Shown here piece after piece: positions 1,076 to 33,265 of a stretch of DNA of 64,000 bases. Origin of the DNA: Gemmatimonadota bacterium (GTDB lineage: Bacteria; Gemmatimonadota; Gemmatimonadetes; Palauibacterales; Palauibacteraceae); assembly GCA_022820995.1 (NCBI GenBank), contig JAJEEM010000023.1, positions 1 through 64,000 on the forward strand, written 5' to 3'. A program made the translations under genes and the position numbers. The number at the start of each line of letters is the position of its first letter. Position 1 is the first letter of the stretch. A model generated the notes under the pieces. That model was not told where the DNA came from. It saw only the letters and a list, made by a program, of their open reading frames with translations, and did not search any database.

Positions 1076-1090
1076 GCGAGGAGAGAGAAC

Positions 1091-7264: not shown

Positions 7265-7366
7265 GGATCCTCCGTCGGGTTTTCGGGGTTGAGCAGCCCG
7301 TGGGAAAAGGCCCTGCTGCGGGGAAACTTGCGCACGGTACGGGGCGTGACTAGGGTTCGGCTTTTC

Positions 7367-7396: not shown

Positions 7397-7408
7397 GCGA
7401 GGATCAGG

Positions 7409-9672: not shown

Positions 9673-9681
9673 GGCGGAGTG

Positions 9682-13900: not shown

Positions 13901-14198
13901 GTCGGAAGCCATCGTGCAGGGGGCCAAGGTCCGCTTCCGTCCCATCATGCTGACCTCCGTGACGACCTTCCTCGGGGTCTCGCCGATCATCCTCGAGCGC
14001 AGCACGCAGGCGCAGTTCCTCTCTCCCATGGCGGTGAGCCTCGGGTTCGGGATCCTGTTCGCGACCTTCATCATCATGCTCGCCGTGCCCGCGCTGGCGA
14101 TGATGAACTACACGTTCACGATGAGGGCGAAGCGGGCCTTCGTCCGCAGGCGGCGAAGGCCGCGACTGGGCCTGGCCGCGGGAGGGATCGAGCGCTGA
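10986..14198 (+). CDS. RND efflux pump permease (AcrB/MMPL-type)
   Basis: A 1070-residue proton-driven inner-membrane pump. It has the canonical layout: TM1 near residues 12-30, a large periplasmic loop, TM2-6, TM7, a second periplasmic loop, and TM8-12. The TM4 proton-relay pair is visible in [13 protein letters not shown], and the second half has the matching [14 protein letters not shown] in TM10. The ATG at 10986 overlaps the adaptor stop (ATGA) and follows AAGGAG. With the adaptor, outer-membrane factor and TetR it forms a complete pump operon. The substrate is unknown. The stop codon overlaps the probable CTG start of cysD (CTGA). Confidence 0.94.
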
Positions 14199-15103
14199 GC
14201 GATCTCTCGGGCACCTGGCTGGCGTCGCTCGAGTCCGAAGCCATCGAAATCCTTCGGGAGGGCCTCGCGGCGGCGTCGCGGCCCGTGATGCTGTATTCGA
14301 TCGGGAAGGACTCCTCGGTGCTCCTTCACCTCTCGCGGAAGGCCTTCTGGCCGGCCGCGCCGCCCTTCCCGCTGCTGCACATCGACACGACGTGGAAGTT
14401 CCGGGACATGATCGCGTTCCGGGACCGCACGGCGGCGGAAACGGGCGTGGAACTCCGGGTTCACACCAACGAGGACGGGCTGCGCGAAGGCGTGAATCCG
14501 TTCGATCACGGGTCCGAACGCTACACCGATGTGATGAAGACGGCGGCGCTGCGGCAGGCGCTCGACGAGGGCGGGTACGACATCGTGTTCGTCGGCGCAC
14601 GGCGGGACGAGGAGAAGTCGCGCGCCAAGGAACGCGTCTTCTCGCTGCGCAACGCGGCCCACCAATGGGATCCGAAGGCGCAGCGTCCCGAGCCGTGGAA
14701 CCTGTACAACACCCGCCTGGCTCCCGGCGAGTCCCTGCGCGTCTCTCCGCTCTCCAACTGGACCGAAGCGGATGTCTGGCGATACATCCGCGCGGAGGAG
14801 ATCCCGATCGTGCCCCTCTACTACGCCGCCGAACGTCCCGTCGTCGAGCGGGATGGACGGTGGATCATGGTCGACGACGGCCGAATGCCGCTGCTCCCCG
14901 GCGAGGAGCCCCGGAAACGGCGCATCCGCTTCCGGACGCTGGGGTGCTACCCGCTGACGGCGGCGGTCGAAAGCGACGCGGATACGCTCGACGCGGTCAT
15001 TGCCGAGACGCTCGCGACGGAAGGTTCCGAACGCGAGGGGCGTCTCATCGACCATGACCGCGACGGCTCGATGGAACACAAGAAGAAGCAGGGCTATTTC
15101 TGA
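14195..15103 (+). CDS. cysD: Sulfate adenylyltransferase subunit 2, probable CTG start
   Basis: The catalytic PP-loop subunit of ATP sulfurylase, which makes adenosine phosphosulfate from sulfate and ATP. The ATP-binding motif [36 protein letters not shown] and the C-terminal KKKQGYF all match CysD. The first conventional start (GTG 14285/ATG 14288) would remove the conserved N-terminal helix [16 protein letters not shown] that precedes VMLYSIGKD in CysD proteins. Extending to CTG 14195 gives 302 residues, the usual family length. GGAGGG (14181-14186) sits 8 nt upstream. The CTG overlaps the RND pump stop as CTGA, suggesting coupling. Its stop overlaps the cysNC ATG. Confidence 0.93.
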
Positions 15104-16959
15104 TGCCGCCGGCGCTTCGCTTCGTGCTCTGCGGCAGCGTCGACGACGGCAAGAGCACGGTCATCGGCCGACTTCTGCATGACTGCCGGCAGGTCTTCTC
15201 GGACGAGCTGAAGCGGGTCGAGCAGGACTCGGTGCGCTACGGCACGCAGGGGACGGCGACGGATCTCGCCCTGCTCGTCGACGGACTGAGGGACGAGCGC
15301 GAGCAGGGCATTACGATCGATGTCGCGTACCGGAGCTTCGAGACGCCGCGGCGCCGCTTCATCGTGGCCGACGCGCCGGGCCACGAGCAGTACACGCGGA
15401 ATATGGCGACGGGCGCCTCGACGGCCGATCTGGCCGTCGTGCTGGTGGACGCGCGCAAGGGCGTTCTGCCCCAGACGGCGCGGCACACGCGGATCGCGGC
15501 CATGTTCGGCGTCCGCCGCGTCGTGCTCGCCGTGAACAAGATGGATCTCGTCGGGTGGGACCGGGACACCTTCGAATCGATCCGGGACGCCTACCGCGGA
15601 ATCGCCGACGAGATCGGTCTCGCCGCGGTCGAGGCGATTCCGGTTTCGGCGCTGACCGGGGCCAACCTCACCCGAACCGGCGCGTCGGCGCCCTGGTATG
15701 CGGGTCCGACGCTTCTCGCCCATCTCGAGACCGTGGACATCGAGGAATCTGCCGCCGGCCGGCCCTTCCGGATGCCGGTGCAGTACGTGAATCGGCCGTA
15801 CGCCGACTTTCGCGGATACTGCGGACGCGTGGCCGCCGGCACGGTGGCGGTCGGCGATGCCGTCGGCATCTCGCCCGCCGGAACCGAGAGCCGCGTGGCG
15901 TCGATCTCGGTGGGGGACCGAACCCGCGAGCGCGCCGCCCGGGGCGACTCCGTGACGTTGACGCTGGCTCCCGATGTCGACGTCACGCGGGGCGACGTCG
16001 TCGCGAGCGCCGGCGAACCCGTCGAGGTTGCGGACCAGTTCCAGGCACGCCTCGTCTGGATGCACGACGAGCCTCTCGCCGTGGGCCGCCCGTACGTGTT
16101 GAAGCTCCACACGCGGGAGGTGGGGGCCGCGGTCACCCGGATCCGGCACCGGCTGGACGTGTCCAACGGCAGCGAGTTGGCCGCTTCCGTTCTGCACTTG
16201 AACGACCTCGGGACCGTGAACCTCGCGACCAGCCGTCCCGTCCCCTTCGCGCCCTTCGAAGAGTCGCGCACGCTGGGCGGCTTCATCCTGATCGATCGCG
16301 CCACGAACGCGACCGCCGCCGCCGGCACGATCGTCTTCCCGCTCATGCGGGCGGCGAACGTGAGTTGGCAGCAGCTGGACGTATCGAAGGATGTCCGCTC
16401 GCGGATGAAGCTTCAGCGCCCCCAGTGCGTGTGGCTGACCGGGATGTCGGCTTCCGGGAAGTCCACCATTGCCAACCTGCTCGACCGCCGGCTGACCATC
16501 GAGGGACGGCACACGTATCTCCTGGACGGCGACAACGTGCGTCACGGCCTGTGCCGCGACCTGGGCTTCACCGAGGCGGACCGGGTGGAGAACATCCGGC
16601 GGGTAGCGGAGGTCGCCCGCCTCATGGTCGACGCCGGCCTGATCGTGATCGTCGCCTTCATCAGCCCGTTCCGGTCGGAACGCGACTACGCCCGAGGTCT
16701 GTTTGCGTCCGGCGAATTCATGGAAGTTCATGTGGACGCATCGCTCGAGGCGTGTGCGGAGCGCGACCCGAAGGGCCTTTACGCCAAGGCGCTCAGGGGA
16801 GAGATCAGGAACTTCACGGGAGTCGACAGCCCCTACGAACGGCCCGAAGATCCCGATCTGCGCCTGGATACGGAAGAACTCTCTCCGGAGGAATGCGTGG
16901 ACCTGCTGACGGAGCGACTCGACCGCGAGCTCCCGACTGCCATGACGGACGCCAACTGA
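15103..16959 (+). CDS. cysNC: Bifunctional sulfate adenylyltransferase subunit 1 / APS kinase
   Basis: A 618-residue fusion. Residues 1 to about 420 are the CysN GTPase: G1 loop GSVDDGKST, switch/G3 DAPGHEQYT and G4 NKMD, followed by two beta-barrels. Residues from about 435 are the CysC kinase with P-loop GMSASGKST (G447) and the DGDNVRHGL motif. With CysD it converts sulfate to APS and then to PAPS. No PAPS reductase (cysH) or sulfite reductase is in the cluster, so PAPS may be destined for sulfation and not only for cysteine synthesis. The start overlaps cysD by one base (TGATG). Confidence 0.95.
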   Translation: MPPALRFVLCGSVDDGKSTVIGRLLHDCRQVFSDELKRVEQDSVRYGTQGTATDLALLVDGLRDEREQGITIDVAYRSFETPRRRFIVADAPGHEQYTRNMATGASTADLAVVLVDARKGVLPQTARHTRIAAMFGVRRVVLAVNKMDLVGWDRDTFESIRDAYRGIADEIGLAAVEAIPVSALTGANLTRTGASAPWYAGPTLLAHLETVDIEESAAGRPFRMPVQYVNRPYADFRGYCGRVAAGTVAVGDAVGISPAGTESRVASISVGDRTRERAARGDSVTLTLAPDVDVTRGDVVASAGEPVEVADQFQARLVWMHDEPLAVGRPYVLKLHTREVGAAVTRIRHRLDVSNGSELAASVLHLNDLGTVNLATSRPVPFAPFEESRTLGGFILIDRATNATAAAGTIVFPLMRAANVSWQQLDVSKDVRSRMKLQRPQCVWLTGMSASGKSTIANLLDRRLTIEGRHTYLLDGDNVRHGLCRDLGFTEADRVENIRRVAEVARLMVDAGLIVIVAFISPFRSERDYARGLFASGEFMEVHVDASLEACAERDPKGLYAKALRGEIRNFTGVDSPYERPEDPDLRLDTEELSPEECVDLLTERLDRELPTAMTDAN

Positions 16960-18722
16960 TGGCGAACGGACCCGGTTCGGATGTAGCGGAGCTGCGATTC
17001 GCGGCCGACGAACGTCCGCCGCGAGCGGCGAGCCTGGTGATCGGCGTACAGACGGCACTCCTTGTGTGCGTGCCGGTGGTCGTGGTCACGACGATCGTCA
17101 CGCGCGTCGCGAACCAGAGCGACGAATACCTCTCCTGGGCGATCTTCGCGAGCATGGTGATCGGGGGCTTTCTCACGATCGTCCAGGCGAAGCGCTTCGC
17201 CGGTCTCGGGGGCGGAACGCTGACCGTGATGGGCGCTTCGGGGGCTTCGATCGGGGTCGGCGTGCTCGCTCTCGTCGCGGGCGGCCCCGCGCTGCTGGGG
17301 GTGCTGGTCCTCGCCGCGGGGCTGTGCCAACTTGCCCTGGCGGCCCGTCTGGCGCTGCTCCGGCGCATTATCACGCCGGTCGTGTCGGGCACGCTGACGG
17401 CGCTCGTGGCCGTGACGATCATGCCCCTGGCGTTCGCCATGCTCACGCGCGTGCCGGAGAACGCTCCGCCGGCCGCGGCCCCCACCGTCGCCGCGGTCAC
17501 GATGCTGTGCGTCATGGGCCTCCTGCTCCGGGGCAAGCGGTTCGTGCGGGCGTGGAACGCTCCCATCGGCATCGCCGCGGGCTGCCTGACCGCCGCGCTG
17601 TTCGGGATTCTCGACTTCGAGCGCGTGGCGGCGGCCCGCTGGATCGGGATCCCCAGCCCCACGCTGTCCGGCCTCGACCTGAGTTTCGACGCGAGCTTCT
17701 GGTTGCTCCTGCCCGGGTTCCTCTTCGTGTCGTTCGTGATCACGATCCGGCAGGTCAGCGACAACGTCCGCATGCAGCACCTCTCCCGGCGCGAGCCGAG
17801 GGCGGTCGATTTTCGCCGGGTCCAGGGGTCCGTCGCCGCCTGCGGGGCCGGCACGCTCCTGTCGGGTTTCGCGGGCGTGCTGCCGCCGTGGCCGTACGTC
17901 GCCGGAATCGCCCTCGCGAGCGGCATCGGCGTCGCCGCCCGCAGCATCGGCGTCGTCATCGGGGTCGTCTTCATCGCCCTCGCCTTCGTGCCGAAGCTCA
18001 CGGCCGTCATCCTCTCGATCCCGGCGCCGGTGCTCGGCGCCTACATCATGGTCGTCTTCGGCCTCATCTTCGTGCAGGGCATGCGGATCCTCTTCCAGGA
18101 GGGGATCGACCGGCAGTATTCGCTGATCGCCGGGCTGGCGTTCTGGATCGGGGCGGGAATCCAGTTCCAGGCGATCTTCCCCGCCTACCTCGCCACGCCT
18201 ATGGGCCGCATGCTCGCGAACGGCCTCACGGTGGGCGGGCTGTCCATCCTCCTCCTGAACCTGTTTCTCGACGTGACCGGACCCCGCCGCCACAGGATCG
18301 AGATGGCGCTGCGCCCGGAGAACCTCCGGGAACTCGACGGGTTCCTCCAGGATTTCGCGGCCAGGTACAAGTGGAGCGGCAAGGCGACGGACCGCCTGCG
18401 GGCGGCGGCCGAAGAGGCGCTCCTGAGTCTCGTGCGGCAGGAAGAGGACGGGGACGCCCCGGCCGCGGAAGAGCGCCGGCTGCGCGTCGTGGCCCGGAAC
18501 CTCCGTTTCGGCGCCGGGCTGGAGTTCACCGCGGCGACGCACGAGGGCAACCTCGAGAACCAGATGGCTCTGCTCGGGGATCGCCCCGACCCGACGAGCG
18601 AGCGGGACCTGTCCCTGGCGCTGCTGCGGCATCACGCCTCCTCCGTCAAGCACCACCAGTACCACAACGCCGATGTCCTGACCGTGCACGTGAACCGCGC
18701 CTGGGCCGCGGACCGGTCGTGA
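16959..18722 (+). CDS. UraA/SulP-fold (NCS2-type) permease with C-terminal ATPase-like domain
   Basis: A 587-residue membrane protein. Residues about 25-435 contain around 12 to 14 hydrophobic segments arranged like the nucleobase/ascorbate (NCS2) family, which shares its fold with SulP sulfate transporters; the glycine-rich GLGGGTLTVMGASGASIGVG near residue 85 fits the half-helix substrate site. From about residue 442 a soluble domain begins (NLRELDGFLQDFAARYKW, RLRAAAEEALLSLV) that resembles the histidine-kinase-type ATPase fold of anti-sigma/regulatory proteins, with its phosphate-loop residues poorly conserved. It starts on the last base of cysNC, so sulfate import is a reasonable inference, but nucleobase transport is not excluded. 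Confidence 0.75.
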   Translation: MANGPGSDVAELRFAADERPPRAASLVIGVQTALLVCVPVVVVTTIVTRVANQSDEYLSWAIFASMVIGGFLTIVQAKRFAGLGGGTLTVMGASGASIGVGVLALVAGGPALLGVLVLAAGLCQLALAARLALLRRIITPVVSGTLTALVAVTIMPLAFAMLTRVPENAPPAAAPTVAAVTMLCVMGLLLRGKRFVRAWNAPIGIAAGCLTAALFGILDFERVAAARWIGIPSPTLSGLDLSFDASFWLLLPGFLFVSFVITIRQVSDNVRMQHLSRREPRAVDFRRVQGSVAACGAGTLLSGFAGVLPPWPYVAGIALASGIGVAARSIGVVIGVVFIALAFVPKLTAVILSIPAPVLGAYIMVVFGLIFVQGMRILFQEGIDRQYSLIAGLAFWIGAGIQFQAIFPAYLATPMGRMLANGLTVGGLSILLLNLFLDVTGPRRHRIEMALRPENLRELDGFLQDFAARYKWSGKATDRLRAAAEEALLSLVRQEEDGDAPAAEERRLRVVARNLRFGAGLEFTAATHEGNLENQMALLGDRPDPTSERDLSLALLRHHASSVKHHQYHNADVLTVHVNRAWAADRS

Positions 18723-18828
18723 GCTCCCGCCGGATGGGGGGTCGGTTGACCGAAACAGGTCGTCCCTGCATGATTTTTTCGCGACACACGGAAGCGACCT
18801 CCAAACCCACTCAGCGAGGATGGAGCAG

Positions 18829-19104
18829 ATGAGCGAGCCACGCCCGGCCCCGACCATGCGGAACGCGGTCGATCTCAGCATCGTCGGAGACAACATCCTG
18901 GACATCGCGGACTTCGCGATCGAGAAGTACGAGTTCACGAACGGCACGACGCTGTCCGATGAGGCACGGACGGAGGCGGTGGAGAAGGTCCGCGACGCGC
19001 TGTGGGAAATGGTGAACGCGTTCCGGGCCCGCCGGAAGGAATGGCGCGCGAGGCTGTTCGCCGCCGCCGACGACGCCGTGCGCGACTGCGTCGAAGGATC
19101 CTGA
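18829..19104 (+). CDS. Small conserved-looking protein of unknown function
   Basis: A 91-residue soluble, charged and mostly helical protein (IVGDNILDIADFAIEKYEFT, then EAVEKVRDALWEMVNAFRAR). No known domain is recognised. Two in-frame ATGs occur (18820, 18829); the second is preceded by GGATGGAG and is preferred. It lies 106 nt after the permease and 40 nt before the radical SAM gene, in the same direction, so it probably belongs to the sulfation/PKS cluster. It lacks the DSL serine motif that would mark a carrier protein. Confidence 0.65.
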   Translation: MSEPRPAPTMRNAVDLSIVGDNILDIADFAIEKYEFTNGTTLSDEARTEAVEKVRDALWEMVNAFRARRKEWRARLFAAADDAVRDCVEGS

Positions 19105-19144
19105 TTCGCATGGAATAGCCGGCTGGCGACCGGACCAGGTCAAC

Positions 19145-20917
19145 ATGCCAAACGCCCTGCTGCTCTACCCCAGGCACCCGCCGACGTACTGGGGCCACGA
19201 CTACGCCCTGGATCTCATGGGCATCAGGGCGGCCTTTCCTCCTCTCGGCCTGCTCACCGTCGCCGCGATGTTTCCGTCGCGGTATAACCTGCGCGTGGTC
19301 GACCTGAACGTGACTCCGCTCGAGGACGCCGACCTGGAGTGGGCGGACCTGGCCTTCACGTCGAGCATGATCCCGCAACGCCCCTCGCTGGAGCAGATCG
19401 TGGGGCGCTGCAACCGCGCGCGGGTTCCCGTCATCGCCGGCGGCCCGCACCCCACCACCTTTCACGAGGAGATGGAGGGCGTCGATCACTTTGTGCTCGA
19501 TGAGGTCGAGGAGACCTTCCCCACCTTTCTTCGCGACCTGGAGAACGGCGCCGCAAAGGCCGTCTATCGCGCCCCGAGGAAGCCTGATGTGACCCTCGCT
19601 CCGCTGCCCCGTTTCGACCTCATCGACCTGAACGACTACTACTCGATGTGCCTGCAGTTCTCGCGGGGGTGCCCCTTCGACTGTGAGTTCTGTGACATCA
19701 CGAAGCTGTACGGCCGCGTGTCCCGAACGAAATCCCCGGAACAGATGGTTGCCGAGTTCGACCTCCTGTATGGCCTGGGATGGCGGGGTCCTCTCTTTCT
19801 CGTCGACGACAACTTCATCGGCAACAAGCGCGAGGTCTCAAGGCTCCTCCCGGCGATCGCAGAATGGCAAAAGGAGCGCGACCACCCCTTCTCCCTGTTC
19901 ACGGAAGCGAGCGTCAATCTCGTCCGAATGGACGACTTGATGGATGTCATGATCGAGGCCGGTTTCGACTCCGTCTTCCTGGGAATCGAGACGCCCAACC
20001 CGAAGGCTCTCAAGAAGATGAAGAAGCCTCAGAACATCGACATGCGCGATGACGACTACCTGTTCAAGGCTGTGCGAAAGATCCAGGGGAAGGGCATGCA
20101 GGTTCTCGGCGGCTTCATTCTCGGGCTCGACGACGACGACGACAACGCGTTCGATGCCCAGATCGATTTCATTCAGCAAGCCGGGATTCCGATGGCACTG
20201 ATCGGGTTGCTGACCGCACTCAAGGGAACGAATCTCTGGACCCGGCTGGAGCGGGAGAATCGATTGTTGGACAAAGCTGTCGAAATCGACGACACCTCCC
20301 TGAACTTCAAGCCGCAAATGGACCCCACGACGCTGGTGGAGGGGTATCTCCGGGTCATCGGGACCATCTACGATTCGACGCTGGAGAACTATTTCGACCG
20401 CTGCCTGACTCTGCTGGACCACCTCAATCCCGTACCGCACCTCCACAAGCGTGTGAACGCGCACATCCTCTACGGGGGCATCATGGGAATCCGCCGGCGC
20501 CTCACGCCGGAACAAATCCCGCCGTTTTCACGCTACATCGCCAAGGTCTCCAGAGACCACCCTCGACTCCTGCCGCTGGCCATCAGTCTGGCCGCCACCG
20601 GCCACCACTGCGAGAAGTTCACGCGCCAGCAGACCGCTCTCCGCAGCTTCAAGGACTACCTGAAGTCGGAGTCGGCGGCGTTCCATGAAGCCGGACGGGA
20701 TCCCGGTTCAGTCGCCGGCCCGGAGGACCCTCTCGTACGGAAGGCTCTGCAACGGGCCAAGAGGCGCCGGAACGCCATCCCCGGTGAATTCCGGTTTACG
20801 GGAGACGGTGTCGGCGAGGCTCTGGCGGACTTCGAGCTTGCGTTGATTTCGGAGCCGAGACCCGCCGGACCGTCGAAGGCGACGCTGCCGGTTCTCGGGG
20901 CCACGACGCGCTCCTGA
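19145..20917 (+). CDS. B12-binding domain radical SAM protein
   Basis: A 590-residue class B-type radical SAM enzyme. An N-terminal Rossmann-like cobalamin-binding region (about residues 1-140, ending VPVIAGGPHPTTF) precedes the radical SAM barrel with the 4Fe-4S motif SRGCPFDCEFCD (CxxxCxxC, about residues 178-188) and a further helical C-terminal domain of the DUF4070 kind. Enzymes of this architecture usually methylate unactivated carbon or phosphorus, or rearrange carbon skeletons; HpnP hopanoid methylase is one example. Its place directly before a PKS with a degenerate methyltransferase domain makes a tailoring methylation role an attractive but unproven inference. Confidence 0.88.
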   Translation: MPNALLLYPRHPPTYWGHDYALDLMGIRAAFPPLGLLTVAAMFPSRYNLRVVDLNVTPLEDADLEWADLAFTSSMIPQRPSLEQIVGRCNRARVPVIAGGPHPTTFHEEMEGVDHFVLDEVEETFPTFLRDLENGAAKAVYRAPRKPDVTLAPLPRFDLIDLNDYYSMCLQFSRGCPFDCEFCDITKLYGRVSRTKSPEQMVAEFDLLYGLGWRGPLFLVDDNFIGNKREVSRLLPAIAEWQKERDHPFSLFTEASVNLVRMDDLMDVMIEAGFDSVFLGIETPNPKALKKMKKPQNIDMRDDDYLFKAVRKIQGKGMQVLGGFILGLDDDDDNAFDAQIDFIQQAGIPMALIGLLTALKGTNLWTRLERENRLLDKAVEIDDTSLNFKPQMDPTTLVEGYLRVIGTIYDSTLENYFDRCLTLLDHLNPVPHLHKRVNAHILYGGIMGIRRRLTPEQIPPFSRYIAKVSRDHPRLLPLAISLAATGHHCEKFTRQQTALRSFKDYLKSESAAFHEAGRDPGSVAGPEDPLVRKALQRAKRRRNAIPGEFRFTGDGVGEALADFELALISEPRPAGPSKATLPVLGATTRS

Positions 20918-21122
20918 AGGTGACCTTAACCTGGCGGTGGATGGCACGTGCCCTGCTGCGTTCGGGCGGCCTCCGGCGACGTTTGCTGGCGGGGGGACGG
21001 CTCGCTAACGTGGCCGCGGTCATTCCAGCGGCCATTCCGGAAGCGCTCAAAGCAATCTCGATACAACAACAGGCCGGCGTCCCGGCGTCCGCGCTCGGGG
21101 GCGCCCGCCGAGCGGAGGCCAC
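20918..21122 (+). other. Intergenic leader before the PKS gene
   Basis: A 205-nt gap inside an otherwise compact run. A 68-codon frame opens at GTG 20920 and reaches the PKS start, but its composition (Ala/Arg/Leu-rich, no family features) looks accidental. I see no strong promoter. GGAGG at 21114-21118 serves the PKS GTG at 21123, with an unusually short spacing of 4 nt. Confidence 0.4.
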
Positions 21123-24100: not shown

Positions 24101-27100
24101 GGGCCAGTACACGTTCACCATCTCCACCCGATCCTTCGAGGATGATGAAGCCGGGACGCTGCACTGCCGCGGAAGGGTGCGGCGCGTGGATGAAAACCAT
24201 GCAGTCGACGCCTTTCCGACGCTGGACGATCTCCTCGCTTCCGATTTCGATCCCTCGCCCCTCGCGACGGGGGAGGAGTTCTACGACCAGATTGAAGCGG
24301 TCGTCGGGGATGCCTTCGAGTTCGGGCCCGAGTTCCGCAGCGTCCAGCGGATCGAGATGGACTCGGGTTCGACGGACATGCTGTTCGAAATCGAGGTCGA
24401 CGAGGAACTGTGGGCGTCCGGCCGCGAGGAGGGATATCTCCTCTACCCCCCGCTTACCGACGGCGGGCTGCAGATTTTCCTGCGCTACCTGATGCGCCTG
24501 CCCGACTTCTTCTCCATGCCGCAGCGGGCGTGCGACATTACGTTCGTGCGCCCCCCGACGGGGCCGCGCATCACCTGCTTTCTCGTCGATACGGGGGACT
24601 GGTTCGACGTGGACGAGCGGGGCCAGTACAACAAACCTCTCGGCGAGCTGTATATCGGGCGGCTCAGCCTCTACGACACCGACACGGGACAACTGCTCGC
24701 CCACATCGGAGAGTATCACTCCTTCAACAGCAATCCGCGCTGGAGCGACGTCCCGGACAGCAAGCACCTCATCCGCTGGCAACCGAAGTTCGTGCCTCCG
24801 GCGCCCCGGATCGGAGACGCGGTCCGCGACGGGGATGTCGATCCCGCCGCCCTCATCGCCGCCCTCGAACAGGGCGCGGCAGGCAGCGCGTACGCCTGTC
24901 ACGTCGTCGAAATCGCCGGCCGCCGGGAGGCGGAACGGACCATGCTCAACCGATGCCTGGAGCATCTCTCCGGCCCCGATGCGCAGAGCGAGTATTGGCT
25001 GCTCGGGGACGACGAGGAATCCACGCACGCACTCTACGAAGCCTTCAATCACCGCGATGCCGCGATTCGCTTCGCCTCGCTGGAAGCCGCGGCGGAGGGC
25101 GCCTCCGAGACGGACATGGCGACGGGTCTGCTACGACCCGCCGCGGCCGAGATCGTTCTTCTGCACCATGACGCGGGCGAAGACGGAGCGGCCGGGGATC
25201 GCTGGTCCGAAGCGTGGGCGCTCCTCGAGCGGCTGGCCGTGCCCGGGGGACTCGCGCTCGTCTCGCATGACGAGGGCGACATCATCGAGCCGGGGAACGG
25301 CTGGAGCACACTTCACGCCGGCCCCCGCGCGACGCTCCTGCAGGCCGCGCAGGAGGATCCCGCGCCGACCGGCGCCGCCGCGGTTTCGGCCGGTACCGCC
25401 GGTCCCCGCTGGGTGATCGGCGAACCCGGCAGCCCGGCCACGGAGTGGATCGCGCAACTCGATCCGACCCAGGCGTACAGCGTCCCCTGGAGCGCCTTCG
25501 AGGACGGTGATTTCGCATCGCTGGAAGTGTGGCCGTGGGGTGCGGACCTCGAGGCGATCGATTTCTTCGTCGGGCCGGCCCCGGACGATCCGACGGGCGA
25601 GCGAGCGGTGTGGCGCCTCGTCGCCTTCCTCCAGGCCCTGGCGCCCCTCCGGCTTGAGAGCGCGAACCGGACTTGTCGCCTGAACGTTGTAACGCAGGGC
25701 GCCGTCTGCGGCGTGGAGGCGCCGCGAGGAAGCGCGCTGTGGGGGGCGGTACGCAGCCTGGCGCTCGAGCTTCTCGCCGAGGACACGAAGCTCGACTTCC
25801 GTCTCGTGGATCTGGGCACGGCGGGCGACCTCGAGACGCTGGCGCGACTCGACGCGTGCGACCCGCGCGAGCGGGAACTGGCTGTCAGGGACGGACGCCT
25901 GTGGGTACCGCGCGTCGTGAGCGTTCGGGATCGTTGGCCGCTCGTGCCCGCGGGCGCAGATCCCCCCTATCGGCTCCGGCTGGACAACCCCGGCCAGGTG
26001 AGCGGCCTGCAGGTGGCGACAACGGCGTTGCCCCGGCTCGGACCCTCCGATGTCGAGATCGAAATGGCCGCGGCGGCACTGAACTTCCGGGATGTCATGG
26101 TCACGCTGGGGCTCCTCCCCGCGCTGGCCTACGAGCGCTCGGCGCTGGGCCGCGAGGTCGGCATCGAGGGGAGCGGGGTCGTGCGCCGCGCCGGCCCGGA
26201 CGTGAAGCGTCTGAGTCCCGGCGACGAGGTGGCCGTCACGACGGGCGGCTGCATCGCCAATCGAATCGTCGTGAACGAGCACCTGGCCTTCCTCAAACCG
26301 CCCGGGCTGAGCATGGAGGAGGCCGCGGCGTCCCTCTCCGTGACCGTGACCGCCTACTACGCGCTCATCCATCTGGCGCGGCTGAGAGAGGGGCAGCGGG
26401 TCCTCATCCACTCCGCGATGGGCGGCGTCGGACAGGCGGCGATCGCGCTGGCGCACCACGTCGGGGCGGAGGTCTACGCGACCGCCGGCAACCGGAGCAA
26501 GCGCGAGCAGTTGCTCGAGATGGGCGTGCGCGGGGCGTTCGATTCGCACAGCCACGGCTGGTACGATGACCTGATGGAGGCCACGGGAGGCGAAGGCGTC
26601 GACGTCGTGCTGAACTCGCTCGCCGGCCACCACATCGCCCTCTGCCTCAAGGCCCTGAGGCCCTCGGGGTGGCACTGCGAGATCGGGAAGGTCGACATCT
26701 TCACGGACAACTCGCTCGGCATGCGGGTCTTCCGCAAGAACCTCCGCTTCGCCGCGATCGACGTCGACCGGTTGATGCTCGACGATCCGGTGCTGTCGCA
26801 CATGCTCTCGCAGGCCTGTCTGGACCTCATGAACGAGGGCGCCGTGCCGCCACCTCGACTCACCGCCTACGAGTACCGCGACTACGCCAGGGCCCTCCGC
26901 CTGATGACGACGGGCGGGCACCAGGGGAAACTGGTCCTGAAGGCGCCGTCCGACCCGGCGGGTAGGGGGTTCGCGATCGCGGACACGCGCCCCTTCCTCG
27001 ACCCCGAGGCCACCTATCTGGTCACGGGCGGGCTGGGTGGCTTCGGGCTGCGCCTGGTGCCGTACCTGATCGCGGCGGGGGCTCGGCACGTCACGCTGAT

Positions 27101-28187
27101 GGACCGCGACCCGGAGCGTCGACGGAGCGTCGAGTGGCTCCGCCAGACGACCACGCTGTCAAAGATGACCGGCGATTACGAGATCGAGATCGTTTCGGGC
27201 GACGTGCGCGACGAGGAGGACGTGCGCCGCTGCATCGCGGGGCTGCAGCGGCCGCTCAAGGGTGTTTTCCACCTCGCCGGGACGCTGGAGGACCGCTCGT
27301 TCCTCGACACCTCCGCCGAGTCGCTGGAGAACGTGTTCGCGCCCAAGGCCCGCGGCGCCCTCAACCTGCACGACGCCACGACCGACTGCGCCCTCGACTA
27401 CTTCGTCCTCTTCTCCTCCATCGCTTCGACGTTCGGGAACGTGGGGCAGGTCAACTACAGCAGCGCGAGCGCTTTCCTGGACGGGCTGGCGGCCTGGCGT
27501 CGCCGGCAGGGGCTGGCGGGGTTCTCGTATAACCTCGGTCCCGTCACGGAGGTCGGGATGGCGGCGCGCAGCCTCCACGTGATGCGCATGATGCGCGCGG
27601 CGGGGATGATGACGGTGAGCGCGAATTTCGCGATCGCCAATCTCGACTACGCCCTGCGCGCTATGGCGCCCGACCCGACGGAGCCCGGCACGCAGGGACA
27701 TGACCACATGGTCACCGCGCTGTTCTCCAACCCGGCGTGGACCGTCGATTCCCCGGACTACATGCGCAACGGGCGCCTGCTCAACAATCAGGCGGCGTTC
27801 GAGGTGAACGTGCGCGGCGAACTGACCCTGGAGAGCGTTGTCGCGCAGATCTCCGCCAAGGTGGCCGAACTTTGCGGGCACGAAGAGGGCGATGTCGCGG
27901 AGCCGCTGTCGAGCTTCGGGCTCACGTCGATTTCAGTCGCCGAACTCGGCGCCTTCATTCAGGCGCAGTACAATCGGCAGGTGAGCGCCCTCGAGCTGAT
28001 GACGACCGCCTCCGCCCTGTCACTGGCGGAGATGATCGTGCACGGAGCCGAGTCGGATGCGGAAGGTGAGGCCGTAGCCGAAACCGATGGATCGGCGGAT
28101 GTCTCACAGCAACGCGTACACCAGGCACGCAGGCGGCGTTCGCCCTTTGCGAACAGGTTGGAGGACCACTTCCCGATCCAGGCATGA
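21123..28187 (+). CDS. Single-module highly reducing type I polyketide synthase (KS-AT-DH-degenerate MT-ER-KR-ACP)
   Basis: A 2354-residue multienzyme. KS: residues about 10-430, active Cys180 (TACSAS), His324 (HATGT) and His363 (NVGHLEA). AT: from about 540, nucleophile Ser632 (GHSSGEV). DH: from about 900, His936, where the usual HxxxGxxxxP reads HRVHRAPIVP with Arg in place of Gly, and DGGLQ as the second acid motif. A vestigial C-methyltransferase lies near 1255-1400: the SAM loop expected as EIGxGxG reads EIAGRREAE. ER: about 1614-1940 (AMGGVGQAAIAL). KR: from about 1960 (TGGLGGFGL, Tyr2112). ACP: about 2225-2300, Ser2269 (GLTS). There is no thioesterase; the next gene, overlapping by 4 nt, supplies a reductase. 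It likely builds a saturated lipid-like chain iteratively. Confidence 0.93.
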   Translation: MTSIADTSGDPIAIVGYAYRMPGGLRTDEDFWRLLSKREVVQESVTERYGRGYQPIGRFSGPGRFGSPYEGLLRDDLEQRMDPGLFGVSHHEMAYMDPQIRMLLGCAWESCEHAGWSLNALRNSRTGVFIGAQVASTANWRALFGTNEFSILSIDASMLANRISYHLNLMGPSIATSTACSASLTALHTAVNSMRQGDCEQALVGAATYLGSARCSASFNALGVISPDGRCHSFDADANGYMRSEGAFVFAVKPLEAAERDGDHIFASIEATAVNTAGTADDAAGFAQGRYITAPTRHSQVELMREACGRAGLRPEDFDYVEAHATGTVVGDRIEGNAIAEAFGGVEREAPLRVASVKSNVGHLEAAAFSCALLKVILMMERRTFAPISENYLVPNPEIDFDLGPIEVQTACEPFPDRPVVVGINSFGFGGANGHCVVREYRRDRSSEWSVPLAPDAGYMIPLSARTPKALEESARRLREYLEGRETDLYTLAGNLSRRRARFPARTAFAVRSRSELVEALDAFVEDPARVSTVEAGDRRVAMVFSGQGTQWAGCGRDLYDADPVFRRVVDAIEEEWRKHSDASLRDACFSASQEELNEVQLAQPAIFMIQCALVEMLAAWGVHPECVVGHSSGEVAAAYASGAISLADATRLVYHRATLQQRVAGSGRMLAIGLDRPAVEDLLRNHRPAEAEIACENSPANTVICGKEAALRPVMDELDRRGLQNRLIPGNIAFHSTAMDPLRDDALEALAFLNDRDFDGDVPMVSSVTGETVERLDNAYWWSNIRKPVLFGMAMETVRRECRPDVVLEIAPHGALQPLIRQCLEAAGPAAVCLPTLMKDEDACPGFQEALGNLYRAGVALDFTSQYPRPEPIAHLLPGHPREETTSNDDLVDDEMFVQRGEYSHGPFVGHRVACDHILFEARLSEKDFPWLTDHRVHRAPIVPAAGYIELLLQAFSGDPINIEEIEFLQHTPVSPTPVRLQTALFPVPDAPGQYTFTISTRSFEDDEAGTLHCRGRVRRVDENHAVDAFPTLDDLLASDFDPSPLATGEEFYDQIEAVVGDAFEFGPEFRSVQRIEMDSGSTDMLFEIEVDEELWASGREEGYLLYPPLTDGGLQIFLRYLMRLPDFFSMPQRACDITFVRPPTGPRITCFLVDTGDWFDVDERGQYNKPLGELYIGRLSLYDTDTGQLLAHIGEYHSFNSNPRWSDVPDSKHLIRWQPKFVPPAPRIGDAVRDGDVDPAALIAALEQGAAGSAYACHVVEIAGRREAERTMLNRCLEHLSGPDAQSEYWLLGDDEESTHALYEAFNHRDAAIRFASLEAAAEGASETDMATGLLRPAAAEIVLLHHDAGEDGAAGDRWSEAWALLERLAVPGGLALVSHDEGDIIEPGNGWSTLHAGPRATLLQAAQEDPAPTGAAAVSAGTAGPRWVIGEPGSPATEWIAQLDPTQAYSVPWSAFEDGDFASLEVWPWGADLEAIDFFVGPAPDDPTGERAVWRLVAFLQALAPLRLESANRTCRLNVVTQGAVCGVEAPRGSALWGAVRSLALELLAEDTKLDFRLVDLGTAGDLETLARLDACDPRERELAVRDGRLWVPRVVSVRDRWPLVPAGADPPYRLRLDNPGQVSGLQVATTALPRLGPSDVEIEMAAAALNFRDVMVTLGLLPALAYERSALGREVGIEGSGVVRRAGPDVKRLSPGDEVAVTTGGCIANRIVVNEHLAFLKPPGLSMEEAAASLSVTVTAYYALIHLARLREGQRVLIHSAMGGVGQAAIALAHHVGAEVYATAGNRSKREQLLEMGVRGAFDSHSHGWYDDLMEATGGEGVDVVLNSLAGHHIALCLKALRPSGWHCEIGKVDIFTDNSLGMRVFRKNLRFAAIDVDRLMLDDPVLSHMLSQACLDLMNEGAVPPPRLTAYEYRDYARALRLMTTGGHQGKLVLKAPSDPAGRGFAIADTRPFLDPEATYLVTGGLGGFGLRLVPYLIAAGARHVTLMDRDPERRRSVEWLRQTTTLSKMTGDYEIEIVSGDVRDEEDVRRCIAGLQRPLKGVFHLAGTLEDRSFLDTSAESLENVFAPKARGALNLHDATTDCALDYFVLFSSIASTFGNVGQVNYSSASAFLDGLAAWRRRQGLAGFSYNLGPVTEVGMAARSLHVMRMMRAAGMMTVSANFAIANLDYALRAMAPDPTEPGTQGHDHMVTALFSNPAWTVDSPDYMRNGRLLNNQAAFEVNVRGELTLESVVAQISAKVAELCGHEEGDVAEPLSSFGLTSISVAELGAFIQAQYNRQVSALELMTTASALSLAEMIVHGAESDAEGEAVAETDGSADVSQQRVHQARRRRSPFANRLEDHFPIQA

Positions 28188-30700
28188 CGCGGTCCACGGC
28201 GACAACGGCGCCCCGCAGCTCGGTCCCGCGACTGGTCGGGAAGCTGCCGCCGCACTGTGAACGCGACCTCTCGGAGCTGCGTCGCTTCGTGCGCGCCGCC
28301 GTGACCGGAGCGGCGCCGGCCGAAGCCGTCTCTCCTTCGGAAATCCGCCGCGTGCTCGTGACCGGTGCGACCGGTTTCGTCGGGCGCTTCCTGGTGCGCG
28401 ACCTGCTGGCGCATGACGCCGGCCTGGAGGTGCACTGCCTCGTGCGGGCGGCGAGCGAGGAGGAGGGTCTCGGCCGGCTGCGCGCGAACATGGAGCACGC
28501 GGAGACCTGGGACGATGACTTCGCTCCGCGCATCCACGTCCACACGGGGGACATCGCCCAGCCGCGGCTCGGTTTGCCGCGCGCCGAGTTCGACCATCTC
28601 CGCGCGAACGTCGACGCCGTCTATCACCTCGCCGCCACGCTGAGCCTGGCCGCCTCGTACGCCGGCATCCGCAGCGTGAACACGTCCAGTCTTCGCAACG
28701 TGCTGGAGCTGTGCCTGCGCACGCGCCGCAAGCACCTCTTCTACGCCGGGACGATGGGGATCTTCCCCGAGTACGTCTGCACCTTCGCGCACGAGTACGA
28801 GGGGAACCGCATCGCCCACCAGGGGCAGCCCGATCTGGCGAGCATGAAGAAGACGTTTCCGCTCGGGCTGCTCGGATATCCCTGGAGCAAGCTGGTTGCC
28901 GAGCAGGCGCTGCTGTTCGCGCAGTCGGCCGGGCTCCCCGTGGCCGTGTTTCGCCTGGGGCAGACCAGCATGGCAACGACCGGATACAGTGAGCCGAACA
29001 ACATCACTCAGCGACTCTTCGCGGCGATCGTCGACACCGGATTGGTTCCATCCGGGTTCGCCCTGCAGTCGACCAACGACCCGGTCGATACACTGAGTCG
29101 CATCTGCACCGACATCTCATTGAACCCGGAACGACGGTTCACGCTCTACAACTGCTGCAATCCGACGCCTTCCTATCGCACAGTGTCGCTCGAGGAGCTC
29201 GGGCTGGATTTGCCGGAGGTGTCGTACCAGGCCTTCAGGCGCGCCTGCCAGGCTCGCGGCGACGCCTCTCCCATGGCCGGGTACTGGCCGGTGCTCGATC
29301 ACTTCGGACGCTATTGGCTGCAAGGGGCCGCGGCGGCCACGTCGCTCCCGATCAGCGACCGCGCCATTCGCGAGGACTGCCCCGAGCCGATCGAATGGCT
29401 CGGCCCGCTTACCCGCTACGTGCGTCATAACCGGTGGGTGCGGGCGCATCGCGAGGACTGGCCCTATCCGCAGCCGCGCCGCAGCCTGGACTTCGACCGG
29501 CTGGTGACGCAGGCGCGGCGTTACGCCGGAGAAAACGGCGTCTCCTTCGAGGACACCTACCCCGAGTGGATGCTCGAAGGGCTGGAGCAGCTTGTGGACG
29601 CGCTCAACTCGCCCGAAGCGACCCTGCCGGAAGATCGGGTCGGCCACATGGTCTTCGACATGTGCCGGATCCTTCGGAACAACGCCGAACTCGCCGGCGA
29701 ACGCCTGCGCCATCCCGCGATCGAGCGGCAGGAGATCGTCCGGCCGGTGTTCATCGTGGGCATCAACCGGACGGGCACGACCTACCTGCACCGCCTCATG
29801 GCCCGGGATCCCCGGTTCTGGGCGCTGCGGGCGTACGAGTACGTCGAGCCCGTCATCGCCGGCGGCGATGACGCCGGCCTGGCCGGCACGTCCGAGGACC
29901 CGCGCCGCGCGCTGGCGAGGGACGTGTTCCGGGCGTCCGGCATCATCGATTCCTTCGAGGGGACGCATCATGTCGGCCTCGACGAGCCGGAAGAGGACAT
30001 GGCGATTCTCCGGCTCTCGTTCAGAGCCTGGATGTTCGCCACGCGGCATCCAATCCCGACCTACGAGCGCTGGCTCGAAGCGAGCGGCTCGCGCGAATCG
30101 TATGCTCTGCACCGGCGCGTCATGCAGCACTACACCTGGCAGCGCCGGGAGTGGAATCGCGGGGCCGACGGACAGTGGCTGTTCAAGATGCCGGCGCATC
30201 TCAGGGAGCTGGAGGCGCTGACCGAAGCGTATCCCGACGCTCTGTTCATCCAGACGCACCGCGAGCCCGTGCAGTTCATGGGATCGTGGTGCAGCCTGGT
30301 GGAGCGGATCCGCGCGGACGTCAGCAAGCCGCGTCCCCCGGATGAGTTGGGCGCCGAGCAGTTGCGCGCGATGGGCCTCCTCCTCGATCGGGCGGTGGCG
30401 TTTCGCGAGTCGCGCCCGGAGCTTGACGACCGCTGGATCGACGTCAGCTACTACGATCTGGTGCAGGATCCGACGGCCGTCGTGGCCCACGTTTACGATC
30501 GTTTCGGCTGGCCCCTGAGACCCGAAGTCGTCGCCGCCATGGAAGCGTGGCTCGACGAGCAGAGCGAGCGCCGCCGCACCGAGAAGCGCCACACGTACGA
30601 CATCGCCGACTACGGGCTGACGCAGGAAATGATCGACGAGGCGTTCGTCCGCTATCGCGATTTTCTTTCGGGCCACAGCCGCCGGGCCTCGCTGTTGTGA
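28184..30700 (+). CDS. Thioester reductase-sulfotransferase fusion protein
   Basis: An 838-residue fusion of two enzymes. Residues about 55-390 form a Rossmann-type terminal reductase of the carboxylate/thioester reductase kind: VTGATGFVG at about 59, HLAATLSL, and the YPWSK motif carrying catalytic Tyr and Lys near 232. Residues about 515-800 form a PAPS-dependent sulfotransferase (Sulfotransfer_3 type): 5'-phosphosulfate loop FIVGINRTGTTYLHR, and the 3'-phosphate segment QTHREPVQFMGSW. The likely chemistry is reductive release of the ACP-bound chain to an aldehyde or alcohol, then O-sulfation. It overlaps the PKS stop (ATGA), so the two are co-translated. The PAPS genes lie upstream in the same run. 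Confidence 0.88.
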   Translation: MTRSTATTAPRSSVPRLVGKLPPHCERDLSELRRFVRAAVTGAAPAEAVSPSEIRRVLVTGATGFVGRFLVRDLLAHDAGLEVHCLVRAASEEEGLGRLRANMEHAETWDDDFAPRIHVHTGDIAQPRLGLPRAEFDHLRANVDAVYHLAATLSLAASYAGIRSVNTSSLRNVLELCLRTRRKHLFYAGTMGIFPEYVCTFAHEYEGNRIAHQGQPDLASMKKTFPLGLLGYPWSKLVAEQALLFAQSAGLPVAVFRLGQTSMATTGYSEPNNITQRLFAAIVDTGLVPSGFALQSTNDPVDTLSRICTDISLNPERRFTLYNCCNPTPSYRTVSLEELGLDLPEVSYQAFRRACQARGDASPMAGYWPVLDHFGRYWLQGAAAATSLPISDRAIREDCPEPIEWLGPLTRYVRHNRWVRAHREDWPYPQPRRSLDFDRLVTQARRYAGENGVSFEDTYPEWMLEGLEQLVDALNSPEATLPEDRVGHMVFDMCRILRNNAELAGERLRHPAIERQEIVRPVFIVGINRTGTTYLHRLMARDPRFWALRAYEYVEPVIAGGDDAGLAGTSEDPRRALARDVFRASGIIDSFEGTHHVGLDEPEEDMAILRLSFRAWMFATRHPIPTYERWLEASGSRESYALHRRVMQHYTWQRREWNRGADGQWLFKMPAHLRELEALTEAYPDALFIQTHREPVQFMGSWCSLVERIRADVSKPRPPDELGAEQLRAMGLLLDRAVAFRESRPELDDRWIDVSYYDLVQDPTAVVAHVYDRFGWPLRPEVVAAMEAWLDEQSERRRTEKRHTYDIADYGLTQEMIDEAFVRYRDFLSGHSRRASLL

Positions 30701-31782
30701 CACTCGGTCGGCTGCGACCGCGCGGGCCGGTTCTCGTCACGGGCGCAAACGGCTACGTCGCGTCGTGGCTCGTGAAGAGGCTTCTGGAACTGGGCATCGA
30801 CGTTCACGGGACCGTGCGCGATCCCCGGGATCCCGCGAGAACCGGCCATCTGCGGACGATCGCCCGGGGCCGTCCCGGGACCCTGTCCCTGTTCCGCGCG
30901 GACCTCCTCGATCCCGACGGGTTCGACCGGGCGATGGCGGGATGCCCGCTGGTCTTCCACACCGCTTCCCCGCTCATCGTGCGCGACGTCGACGATCCGT
31001 CGCGCGACCTCATCGAGCCCGCGACGCGCGGCACGCGCCACGTACTCGAGGCCGCTGGCCGGACGGGCGCGGTCCGGCGGGTGGTGCTGACTTCCAGCAT
31101 CGTGGCGATCTATGGGGACGCGGCAGACCTGGAGCAGATCGAGGCGGACCGATTCGACGAGAGCCACTGGAACACCACCAGCCACGAAGGCCACCAGCCC
31201 TATTCCTACTCCAAGACGCTGTCGGAGCGGCTGGCCTGGAAGATGGCGGAGGAACAGACCCGGTGGGACCTGGTGGTCGTGAATCCCGGGCTGGTTCTCG
31301 GACCCGGCCTCAGCCGGAGTACGAACGCCGAAGGGGTCCTGATCATGCGCGATCTGGGAAACGGCGCCCATCGCGTCGGTGCCGCGGAACTGGAGTTCGC
31401 CATCGTCGACGTCCGGGATGTCGCGGAAGGCCACCTGCAGGCGGGCCTCATGCGGGAGGCGGAGGGACGCCACATCCTGGTCAGCGAGACCCGCAGCCTG
31501 ATCGAAATCGCCGGGATCCTGCGGGACCGCTTCGGCGACCGCTTTCCCCTGCCCCGGCGCACCGTGCCCATTCCGATGTCCATCTCGTACGCACCCCTGC
31601 GGGGTATCCCCCGCGCCGTGGCGAAGCGCAACGTGGGGTACCCGCTGAGGTTCGAGAACGCGCGCGCCAGGACCGTCCTCGGCGTCGAATTCCGTCCCGT
31701 CGAGGAGACCATTACGAGTCACTTCCAGCAACTGCTCGACGACGGTCTCGTCTCCGCGCCCCGGGGCGGCCGCCGAGGCTGA
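30697..31782 (+). CDS. NAD(P)-dependent SDR/epimerase family reductase (dihydroflavonol reductase-like)
   Basis: A 361-residue extended short-chain dehydrogenase. The cofactor motif VTGANGYVASWLVKRLLE is near the N-terminus, followed by FHTASP, the catalytic Ser in TSSIVAIYG and the YSYSK motif (Tyr, Lys). It resembles dihydroflavonol-4-reductase/cinnamoyl-CoA reductase-like enzymes that reduce aldehydes or ketones. The GTG start overlaps the preceding stop (GTGA, 30697-30700), so it belongs to the PKS operon. It could reduce the aldehyde released by the reductase domain to the alcohol that is sulfated, or act on a keto group; which is unknown. Confidence 0.88.
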   Translation: MTLGRLRPRGPVLVTGANGYVASWLVKRLLELGIDVHGTVRDPRDPARTGHLRTIARGRPGTLSLFRADLLDPDGFDRAMAGCPLVFHTASPLIVRDVDDPSRDLIEPATRGTRHVLEAAGRTGAVRRVVLTSSIVAIYGDAADLEQIEADRFDESHWNTTSHEGHQPYSYSKTLSERLAWKMAEEQTRWDLVVVNPGLVLGPGLSRSTNAEGVLIMRDLGNGAHRVGAAELEFAIVDVRDVAEGHLQAGLMREAEGRHILVSETRSLIEIAGILRDRFGDRFPLPRRTVPIPMSISYAPLRGIPRAVAKRNVGYPLRFENARARTVLGVEFRPVEETITSHFQQLLDDGLVSAPRGGRRG

Positions 31783-31802
31783 AAGCGGCCGTCACCCTGG
31801 CG

Positions 31803-33170: not shown

Positions 33171-33265
33171 CTCGTCCTCTCTCACGAGACGTTACGATTA
33201 GCAAAATCGTCCGGTCTCGGAGCTTGAGCCGCAAGCCCCGGCCGGACCCGGACCCGGAGCCGCGC

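What the first reader, a model, noticed from the sequence alone, without database searches (positions are those of the whole stretch)
14195..31782. PAPS-making genes run directly into a PKS, thioester reductase-sulfotransferase fusion and reductase: candidate sulfated polyketide/lipid pathway
Seen: cysD, cysNC, a UraA/SulP-fold permease, a small protein, a B12 radical SAM protein, a single-module reducing PKS, a reductase-sulfotransferase fusion and an SDR all lie on one strand, most with overlapping or short junctions. Known: CysD and CysN-CysC make PAPS, and Sulfotransfer_3-type enzymes use PAPS. The cluster lacks cysH and sulfite reductase, so the PAPS is not obviously routed to cysteine here. 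Inference: the cluster builds a lipid-like chain, releases it reductively, and sulfates the resulting alcohol, perhaps a surface or secreted sulfolipid. I know of no described cluster with this exact set.
Basis: partly seen in the sequence, partly recalled or inferred. Interest (0 to 1): 0.9.

Follow-up and report, generated by a model that had tools for sequence, protein, structure and literature searches.

The report
Sponge symbiont sulfated-lipid gene island
A bacterium that lives in marine sponges carries one block of genes that activates sulfate and, by inference, attaches it to a fatty alcohol made by the same block; the fatty-chain part was described in 2013, but its tie to the cell's sulfate-activating genes appears to be new.

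Summary
Window 14195-31782 encodes CysD, CysN-CysC, an NCS2/UraA-type permease, a 94-aa protein, a B12 radical SAM protein, a one-module KS-AT-DH-ER-KR-ACP synthase, a thioester reductase-sulfotransferase fusion and an extended SDR, all on one strand. The genome is a Candidatus Palauibacter-type Gemmatimonadota sponge symbiont. The synthase, fusion and radical SAM genes match the swf cluster (swfA, swfB, swfC) described in 2013 (PMC3908369), whose authors already proposed an alkyl sulfate. So the core is not new. What appears new: (1) no CysH or sulfite reductase was found in the genome, and the island's CysNC is its only APS kinase match; (2) all 12 swf+ genomes of the genus carry cysD-cysNC-permease-small protein directly beside swf; (3) in 4 of 5 swf-free genomes of the genus the efflux-pump gene neighbours the aldehyde dehydrogenase gene with no island between; (4) swf genes at this site have been exchanged with another family while the PAPS block stayed; (5) two further cysDNC loci in the genus also sit with sulfotransferases. 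Best reading: a PAPS-to-alkyl-sulfate island. The product is inferred, not shown. Verdict: new variant of a known kind.

The parts
14195..15103 (+). cysD, sulfate adenylyltransferase small subunit; likely CTG start after a GGAGG-like site, overlapping the RND stop by 4 bases
   Evidence: TIGR02039 474.8 bits, NF009214 493 bits; the only PAPS_reduct-family match in the genome; CTG codon and 4-base overlap in 11 of 11 swf+ genomes where both genes lie on one stretch
15103..16959 (+). cysNC, sulfate adenylyltransferase large subunit fused to APS kinase
   Evidence: NF004035 910.8 bits; APS_kinase 224.1 bits; only APS_kinase match in the genome
16959..18722 (+). NCS2/UraA-fold permease with an extra ~145-aa C-terminal domain, weakly similar to HATPase_c_2
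   Evidence: Xan_ur_permease 121.6 bits; C-terminal domain 20.7 bits against a cut-off of 27.4, unproven; a permease closest to SupE stands upstream of swfA in a 2013 fosmid
18820..19104 (+). small 94-aa protein of unknown function, found beside many swf clusters
   Evidence: homologues in 17 of 20 swf loci fetched from another family; in a 2013 fosmid a 92-aa ORF19 stands in the same place (homology to it not tested here)
19145..20917 (+). swfC, B12-binding radical SAM protein, likely methyltransferase
   Evidence: B12-binding, Radical_SAM, DUF4070; under every NCBIfam cut-off; CPFDCEFC motif
21123..28187 (+). swfA, one-module synthase KS-AT-DH-ER-KR-ACP, 2354 aa
   Evidence: Pfam domains in that order; catalytic motifs present; KS has DPQI, not DPQQ, and AT has FSGQGTQW
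28184..30700 (+). swfB, thioester reductase + PAPS-dependent sulfotransferase fusion, 838 aa
   Evidence: NAD_binding_4 161.6 bits and Sulfotransfer_3 122.6 bits; NCBIfam thioester-reductase model 196.1 bits, under its cut-off of 213.35; GATGF, YPWSK, GINRTGTT and HREP motifs
30697..31782 (+). extended SDR (Epimerase/3-beta-HSD/HpnA-like), candidate aldehyde or ketone reductase
   Evidence: Pfam and NCBIfam hits, the latter under cut-off; YSYSK motif; beside swf in 11 of 20 loci of another family
10986..14198 (+). flank: RND (AcrB-type) pump, last gene of an outer-membrane factor / fusion protein / RND run; part of the host site, not of the island
   Evidence: ACR_tran 559.8 bits; next to ALDH without an island in G024, G030, G033 and G034
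14135..31799 (.). stretch absent from the relative G024
   Evidence: left homology ends at 14134, right resumes at about 31800
31803..33185 (-). flank: aldehyde dehydrogenase (ALDH) on the opposite strand, right border of the site
   Evidence: Aldedh 466.3 bits; follows the island in 12 of 12 swf+ genomes

Best explanation
[quoted passage not shown] Proposed path: sulfate taken up by a SulP transporter coded elsewhere is turned into APS and then PAPS by CysD/CysNC. SwfA builds a reduced acyl chain from malonyl units, working repeatedly. The SwfB reductase releases the chain as an aldehyde or alcohol, with the SDR possibly finishing the reduction, and the SwfB sulfotransferase moves sulfate from PAPS to the new alcohol, giving an alkyl sulfate. 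SwfC adds methyl branches. The permease, and perhaps the adjoining RND pump, handle transport. Shown by sequence: gene content, motifs, conserved linkage, island boundaries, no CysH or sulfite reductase found. Inferred: every chemical step, the product, methylation, transport and co-transcription.
For: Domains and motifs. No CysH and no sulfite reductase found in the genome. Island CysNC is the only full-length APS kinase match in 11 of 12 swf+ genus genomes; G025 has two. cysD in 12 of 12 swf+ genus genomes and 1 of 5 swf-free ones. SulP in 13 of 13 cysD+ and 0 of 4 cysD- genus genomes. cysD-cysNC-permease-small protein beside swf in 12 of 12. Empty sites. A separate cysDNC-swf arrangement in another family, G257. 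Two further cysDNC loci sit with sulfotransferases. Closest solved reductase domain is MxaA, 4u7w; the published study of the myxalamid reductase speaks in its title of primary alcohols (Barajas et al. 2015, seen only as a reference entry; that 4u7w comes from it is recalled).
Against: No product is known. Two other sulfotransferase genes in the genome (C25) would draw on the same PAPS. In the other swf+ family only 1 of 20 fetched loci has cysDNC next to swf, and PAPS_reduct matches there (65 of 121 genomes) are not limited to swf+ genomes. Four of 17 genus genomes lack cysD, yet three of those have an APS kinase, and G033, with neither, has a sulfotransferase-like gene; so sulfotransferases and PAPS making in the family are wider than this island. 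The permease's best models are nucleobase transporters. Flanks are also conserved across the genus, so synteny inside it is partly plain inheritance. The 205-bp swfC-swfA gap could hold a promoter.
Confidence: 0.68

Rival explanations
1. Sulfation is a leaving-group trick, as in curacin synthesis: the sulfate ester is lost again and the end product is an alkene or other unsulfated lipid.
For: The 2013 authors raise this precedent for SwfB. A sulfotransferase beside a reductive synthase is compatible with it.
Against: No thioesterase or decarboxylase Pfam hit among the eight proteins; in SwfB a reductase, not a thioesterase, is joined to the sulfotransferase.
Confidence: 0.12
2. cysDNC is a general PAPS supply for all sulfotransferases of the cell, and its position beside swf has no special meaning.
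For: Two other sulfotransferase genes in the genome; a stand-alone ~430-aa sulfotransferase in 10 of 12 swf+ genus genomes; G029 has cysDNC without swf.
Against: cysDNC and swf are absent together at the site in G024, G030, G033 and G034; a second family has its own cysDNC-swf pairing, though in 1 of 20 loci; the G025 and G029 extra cysDNC copies are also beside sulfotransferases. A shared supply and a dedicated island do not exclude each other.
Confidence: 0.15
3. cysDNC serves cysteine synthesis and the neighbourhood is chance.
For: CysD and CysNC are classic assimilation enzymes (recalled).
Against: One PAPS_reduct match in the genome, CysD itself; sulfite reductase in 0 of 35 family genomes while 11 of 14 controls ring.
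Confidence: 0.03

Closest known systems
swf cluster of sponge symbionts (swfA-swfB-swfC; PMC3908369, fosmids PS11G3 and PSA11D7)
   Same: Same three genes with the same domain orders and near-identical lengths (2349/839/585 aa in PS11G3, 2354/838/590 here); a permease and a 92-aa protein upstream in PS11G3.
   Different: Here cysD and cysNC lead the run and an SDR ends it. The two published gene tables list no cysD or cysNC. A STAS-type gene stands between permease and small protein in PS11G3 and STAS genes occur in 8 of 20 loci of another family; none was found in the stretches read from 17 genus genomes, and in the swf+ ones permease and small protein are 60-121 bp apart.
NodP-NodQ with NodH (rhizobial Nod-factor sulfation) and RaxP-RaxQ with RaxST (recalled, no call)
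   Same: A CysD + CysNC pair kept with a sulfotransferase to sulfate a host-directed molecule.
   Different: Here no CysH or sulfite reductase was found in the genome, and the presumed substrate is a polyketide-type chain.
Mycobacterial sulfolipid-1 pathway (Pks2, Stf0, MmpL8; recalled)
   Same: Reducing one-module synthase, sulfotransferase, and an RND-type pump nearby.
   Different: The Pks2 model matches at 892.2 bits against a cut-off of 2400; the pump here is an older neighbour; reductase-sulfotransferase fusion.
Curacin-type sulfotransferase release (named; details recalled)
   Same: PAPS-dependent sulfotransferase working with a type I synthase.
   Different: Reductase-sulfotransferase instead of sulfotransferase-thioesterase.

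Membership tests
swf cluster | SwfA: one module KS-AT-DH-ER-KR-ACP of about 2350 aa | tested here: met
   2354 aa
swf cluster | SwfA KS lacks the DPQQ motif (stated in PMC4245539) | tested here: met
   DPQI in the window; DPQQ in none of 19 SwfA rows examined, several of them partial
swf cluster | AT primer regions FSGQGTQW and QCALVEL | tested here: inconclusive
   window SwfA has FSGQGTQW but not QCALVEL letter for letter
swf cluster | SwfB: reductase + sulfotransferase fusion of about 839 aa | tested here: met
   838 aa
swf cluster | SwfC: B12-binding radical SAM protein (absent from one published cluster) | tested here: met
swf cluster | direct sequence identity to the published swf proteins | not tested
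   one accession guessed from memory was not found; the published sequences were not at hand
PAPS synthesis (CysD + CysNC) | CysD and CysN-CysC above curated cut-offs | tested here: met
Assimilatory sulfate reduction | CysH and sulfite reductase present | tested here: not met
Sulfolipid-1 Pks2 equivalog | NF041183 cut-off 2400 bits | tested here: not met
   892.2 bits
Curacin/olefin-type release | sulfotransferase followed by thioesterase | tested here: not met
   no thioesterase hit in swfA or swfB
Alkyl sulfate biosynthesis | product detected | not testable with these tools
   needs chemistry

The most novel reading that the evidence does not exclude
In this genus sulfate is activated only to decorate exported lipids. 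A fixed hub (cysD-cysNC-permease-small protein) sits at one chromosomal site, and different swf cassettes are swapped in behind it by gene transfer between sponge symbionts of at least two families, so that each species keeps the sulfation supply but changes the lipid. The genus also uses cysDNC with other sulfotransferase sets, including one (G025) with the same SDR and permease types but with MPAB oxygenases in place of the synthase, which would make the hub a general sulfation module for host-facing lipids.
Probability: 0.4. Interest if true: 0.75.

Novelty: new variant of a known kind. Interest (0 to 1): 0.58.

Why it matters
swf is one of the one-module synthase families reported to be widespread in marine sponges, and the 2013 paper left its product unknown. 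Finding it joined to the only PAPS-making genes found in a bacterium with no detected sulfate-reduction genes argues that its product is a sulfate ester and says what to look for by mass spectrometry. Alkyl sulfates are known from sponges and ascidians; one review says in its abstract that no ecological role has been proposed and in its introduction that evidence for such roles is growing (PMC6780655, passages). Symbionts with this island would be candidate makers. A conserved supply block with exchangeable synthesis genes would also be a useful case of how symbionts vary their surface chemistry.

Tried and rejected
Sulfate assimilation: rejected because neither CysH nor sulfite reductase was found in the genome.

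RND pump as part of the island: rejected as a founder gene, because it stays next to ALDH in four swf-free genomes; it may still have been recruited, since cysD overlaps it in 11 of 11 readable cases.

Permease as the only sulfate importer: unlikely, because a SulP transporter with a STAS domain exists elsewhere in the genome (G000:C78).

C-terminal permease domain as a HATPase: not settled. Pfam gives 20.7 bits, under the cut-off of 27.4, for the window domain, 12.9 bits for one relative and no such hit for three others; the profile finds no solved structure. Structure prediction could not be run: the machine was full each time.

'cysD-free relatives make no PAPS': dropped. APS kinase is in 30 of 35 family genomes, and one other genus has ATP sulfurylase next to it (G018).

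Within-genus synteny as proof of function: weakened, because flanks are equally conserved; the weight was put on empty sites, cassette exchange and the second family.
Full report
What is there. The window is contig 42 of a 3.72-Mb genome, 94.71% complete and 3.12% contaminated by the database's figures. A same-genus genome, G026, has a 144,131-bp contig with the swfB match at the same place as a record titled Candidatus Palauibacter rhopaloidicola, so I place the window in that Gemmatimonadota sponge-symbiont genus. The run 14195-31782 holds eight genes on the + strand: cysD, cysNC, NCS2 permease, a 94-aa protein, a B12 radical SAM protein, a one-module synthase, a reductase-sulfotransferase fusion and an SDR. 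Junctions are -1, -1, 97, 40, 205, -4 and -4 bases in that order, and cysD overlaps the upstream RND gene by 4 bases.

Motifs. SwfA keeps the KS cysteine and both histidine motifs (TACSAS, EAHATGT, KSNVGH), AT GHSSG with an IAFH specificity stretch that I read, from recalled rules, as malonyl type, the DH H...P and DGGLQ stretches, ER GGVGQAA, KR TGGLGGFG with a Tyr and Asn in the expected stretch, and ACP GLTS. The DH glycine of the usual HxxxGxxxxP is R in the window and G in G025. In SwfB the YxxxK of the reductase is kept in 17 of 17 near full-length rows, one of which (G026) has an in-frame stop inside the motif. The GxNRTGTT loop of the sulfotransferase is in 17 of 19 rows, the other two being fragments. 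The best solved matches are the MxaA reductase (4u7w, 140.9 bits) and two chains named only 'putative uncharacterized protein', 2zq5 and 2z6v, for the sulfotransferase (recalled to be mycobacterial). The NCBIfam thioester-reductase model scores 196.1, under its cut-off of 213.35. SwfC has CPFDCEFC.

The core is known. PMC3908369 (passages and part 1 of section 5) describes swfA (KS-AT-DH-ER-KR-ACP, 2349 aa), swfB (R+ST, 839 aa) and swfC (radical SAM, 585 aa), with a SupE-like permease, a STAS-type protein and a 92-aa protein upstream on one fosmid. The authors suggested an alkyl sulfate, possibly methylated by SwfC, and also raised the leaving-group alternative. Their two gene tables list no cysD or cysNC. 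Of later papers, seen as passages, PMC9426513 reports swf-like clusters in Nitrospirota, Latescibacterota and Acidobacteriota MAGs, PMC4245539 reports swfA amplicons and lifts the earlier assignment to Poribacteria, and PMC9864124 says that SupA and SwfA take part in making methyl-branched fatty acids, citing earlier work. Searches for at least two of swfA/swfB/swfC (only the 2013 paper), for sulfated-lipid clusters with cysD and PAPS (two papers on sulfated capsules) and for sponge symbiont sulfotransferase clusters with sulfate adenylyltransferase (one paper, not opened) showed no description of a cysDNC-swf link in their listings; this covers only the open PubMed Central papers held. PMC10469786, on the order Palauibacterales, has no word beginning with sulfate, sulfotransferase or cys in its main text.

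No route to cysteine found. The only PAPS_reduct match in the genome is CysD. Sulfite reductase (NIR_SIR) is in 0 of 35 genomes of the family, with 11 of 14 controls positive. Elsewhere in the genus two weak PAPS_reduct matches occur besides CysD (G032 36.8 bits, G025 35.1 bits), which I did not identify. The only APS_kinase match in this genome is the island's CysNC; of the 12 swf+ genomes of the genus, 11 have one full-length match, their other matches covering some 40 positions at 23.1 bits or less, and G025 has two full ones. Against exclusivity: APS kinase occurs in 30 of 35 family genomes, so APS or PAPS use in the family is wider than this island, and G018 has ATP sulfurylase beside it.

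Co-occurrence in the genus (17 genomes). swfB is found in 12, counting G019, where it is split over two contigs. cysD is found in 13: those 12 and G029. SulP is found in the same 13 and in none of the other four. Of the 18 other family genomes none has cysD or a near full-length swfB (partial reductase or sulfotransferase hits occur), but some have SulP. These genomes are related, so they are not independent trials.

Linkage. cysD-cysNC-permease-small protein stand in this order and directly beside a swf gene on the same contig in 12 of 12 swf+ genus genomes. The cassette behind them differs: swfC first, then swfA and swfB, in the window and most others; swfA-swfC-swfB in G020, G022, G023 and G027; and an SDR inverted between swfC and swfA in G021. 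The SDR was found in G000, G019, G021, G026, G028, G031 and G032 and not in the stretches read from G020, G022, G023, G025 or G027.

Empty sites. In G024 the left flank matches to window 14134 and the right flank from about 31800, with the RND gene's last codons running into the ALDH gene; the altered RND end suggests later loss. In G030, G033 and G034 the RND and ALDH genes are neighbours with about 280 to 610 bp between the DNA matches and no island. In G029 GGT is next to ALDH, an RND match lies on another contig, and cysDNC is on a third. The FastTree of RND+ALDH put G024 beside these outgroups with support 0.86, so gain after G024 branched off is not excluded.

Cassette exchange. In the swf+ genomes, identity to the window is 96-99% for RND and 88-94% for CysNC, but 64-98% for SwfA and 53-99% for SwfB. 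G026 SwfB falls among f6 rows, G025 pairs with f6 G257, and G020, G022, G023 and G027 form a group that includes f6 G362. The program warned of long branches joining this last group to the alphaproteobacterial rows and flagged G021, so I make no claim there. The CysNC tree keeps the 12 island copies on short branches, with G029 and G257 distant.

Other family. swfB at E<=1e-100 is in 33 of 395 phylum genomes: 10 of the genus and 23 of family f6. PF01507 matches are in 21 of those 23, but also in other genomes of that family, 65 of 121 in all. Of 20 f6 loci fetched (the 3 partial ones not fetched), 17 have the small protein, 11 the SDR, 8 a STAS gene and 5 the permease within the stretch, and 1 (G257) has cysD-cysNC-small protein on the opposite strand right behind swfC. 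In six more genomes cysD is on the same contig 33-39 kb away.

Second sulfation sets. G025:C90 has a permease 43% identical over nearly its whole length including the C-terminal domain, an SDR 61% identical, a CysNC 88% identical, a Sulfotransfer_3 protein and two MPAB oxygenases. G029:C31 has two sulfotransferase ORFs, one read on from a P450 piece, an MPAB oxygenase, and cysD-cysNC. cysDNC in this genus is therefore found with sulfotransferases at each of the three kinds of locus seen.

Judgement. The tie to PAPS, the island boundaries and the exchange of cassettes appear to be additions. The chemistry remains inference.

Noticed in passing
L162 (G025:C90), 1380-13517: A second PAPS set: permease, LuxR-type gene, MPAB oxygenases, cysNC, cysD, SDR and sulfotransferase; no synthase was seen among the ORFs tested in the stretch read.
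   Followed up: partly
L106 (G029:C31), 66-7342: Sulfotransferases and an MPAB oxygenase upstream of cysD-cysNC in a genome where swf was not found.
   Followed up: partly
window 14195-14197: cysD seems to start with CTG inside the stop of the RND gene (CTGA), with a GGAGG-like site ahead; the same codon in 11 of 11 readable swf+ genomes including the window.
   Followed up: partly
L157 (G000:C25), 5092-7733: Two adjoining sulfotransferase genes, one with a glycosyltransferase-like part, which would also need PAPS.
   Followed up: no
window 34221-38917: Fe-S/NrfD and molybdopterin oxidoreductase genes, nearest models tetrathionate/thiosulfate reductase types but far below cut-offs; conserved flank, possibly sulfur-related.
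   Followed up: no
L158 (G020:C38), 2440-3690: A stand-alone Sulfotransfer_3 gene next to an SDR and a DUF1214 gene; similar hits (145-176 bits) in 10 of 12 swf+ genus genomes; among the five swf-free ones only G033 has a sulfotransferase hit, weaker at 73.6 bits.
   Followed up: partly
G031 contigs C5 and C45: The contigs share 141 bases of window match at the RND/cysD border, which may reflect a fork in the assembly between strains with and without the island.
   Followed up: no
L044 2082-2426 and other f6 loci: A STAS gene between permease and small protein; not found in the stretches read from the 17 genus genomes.
   Followed up: partly
L010 / G026:C31 6206-8704: The G026 swfB has one in-frame TAG, so it may be broken or misread.
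   Followed up: no
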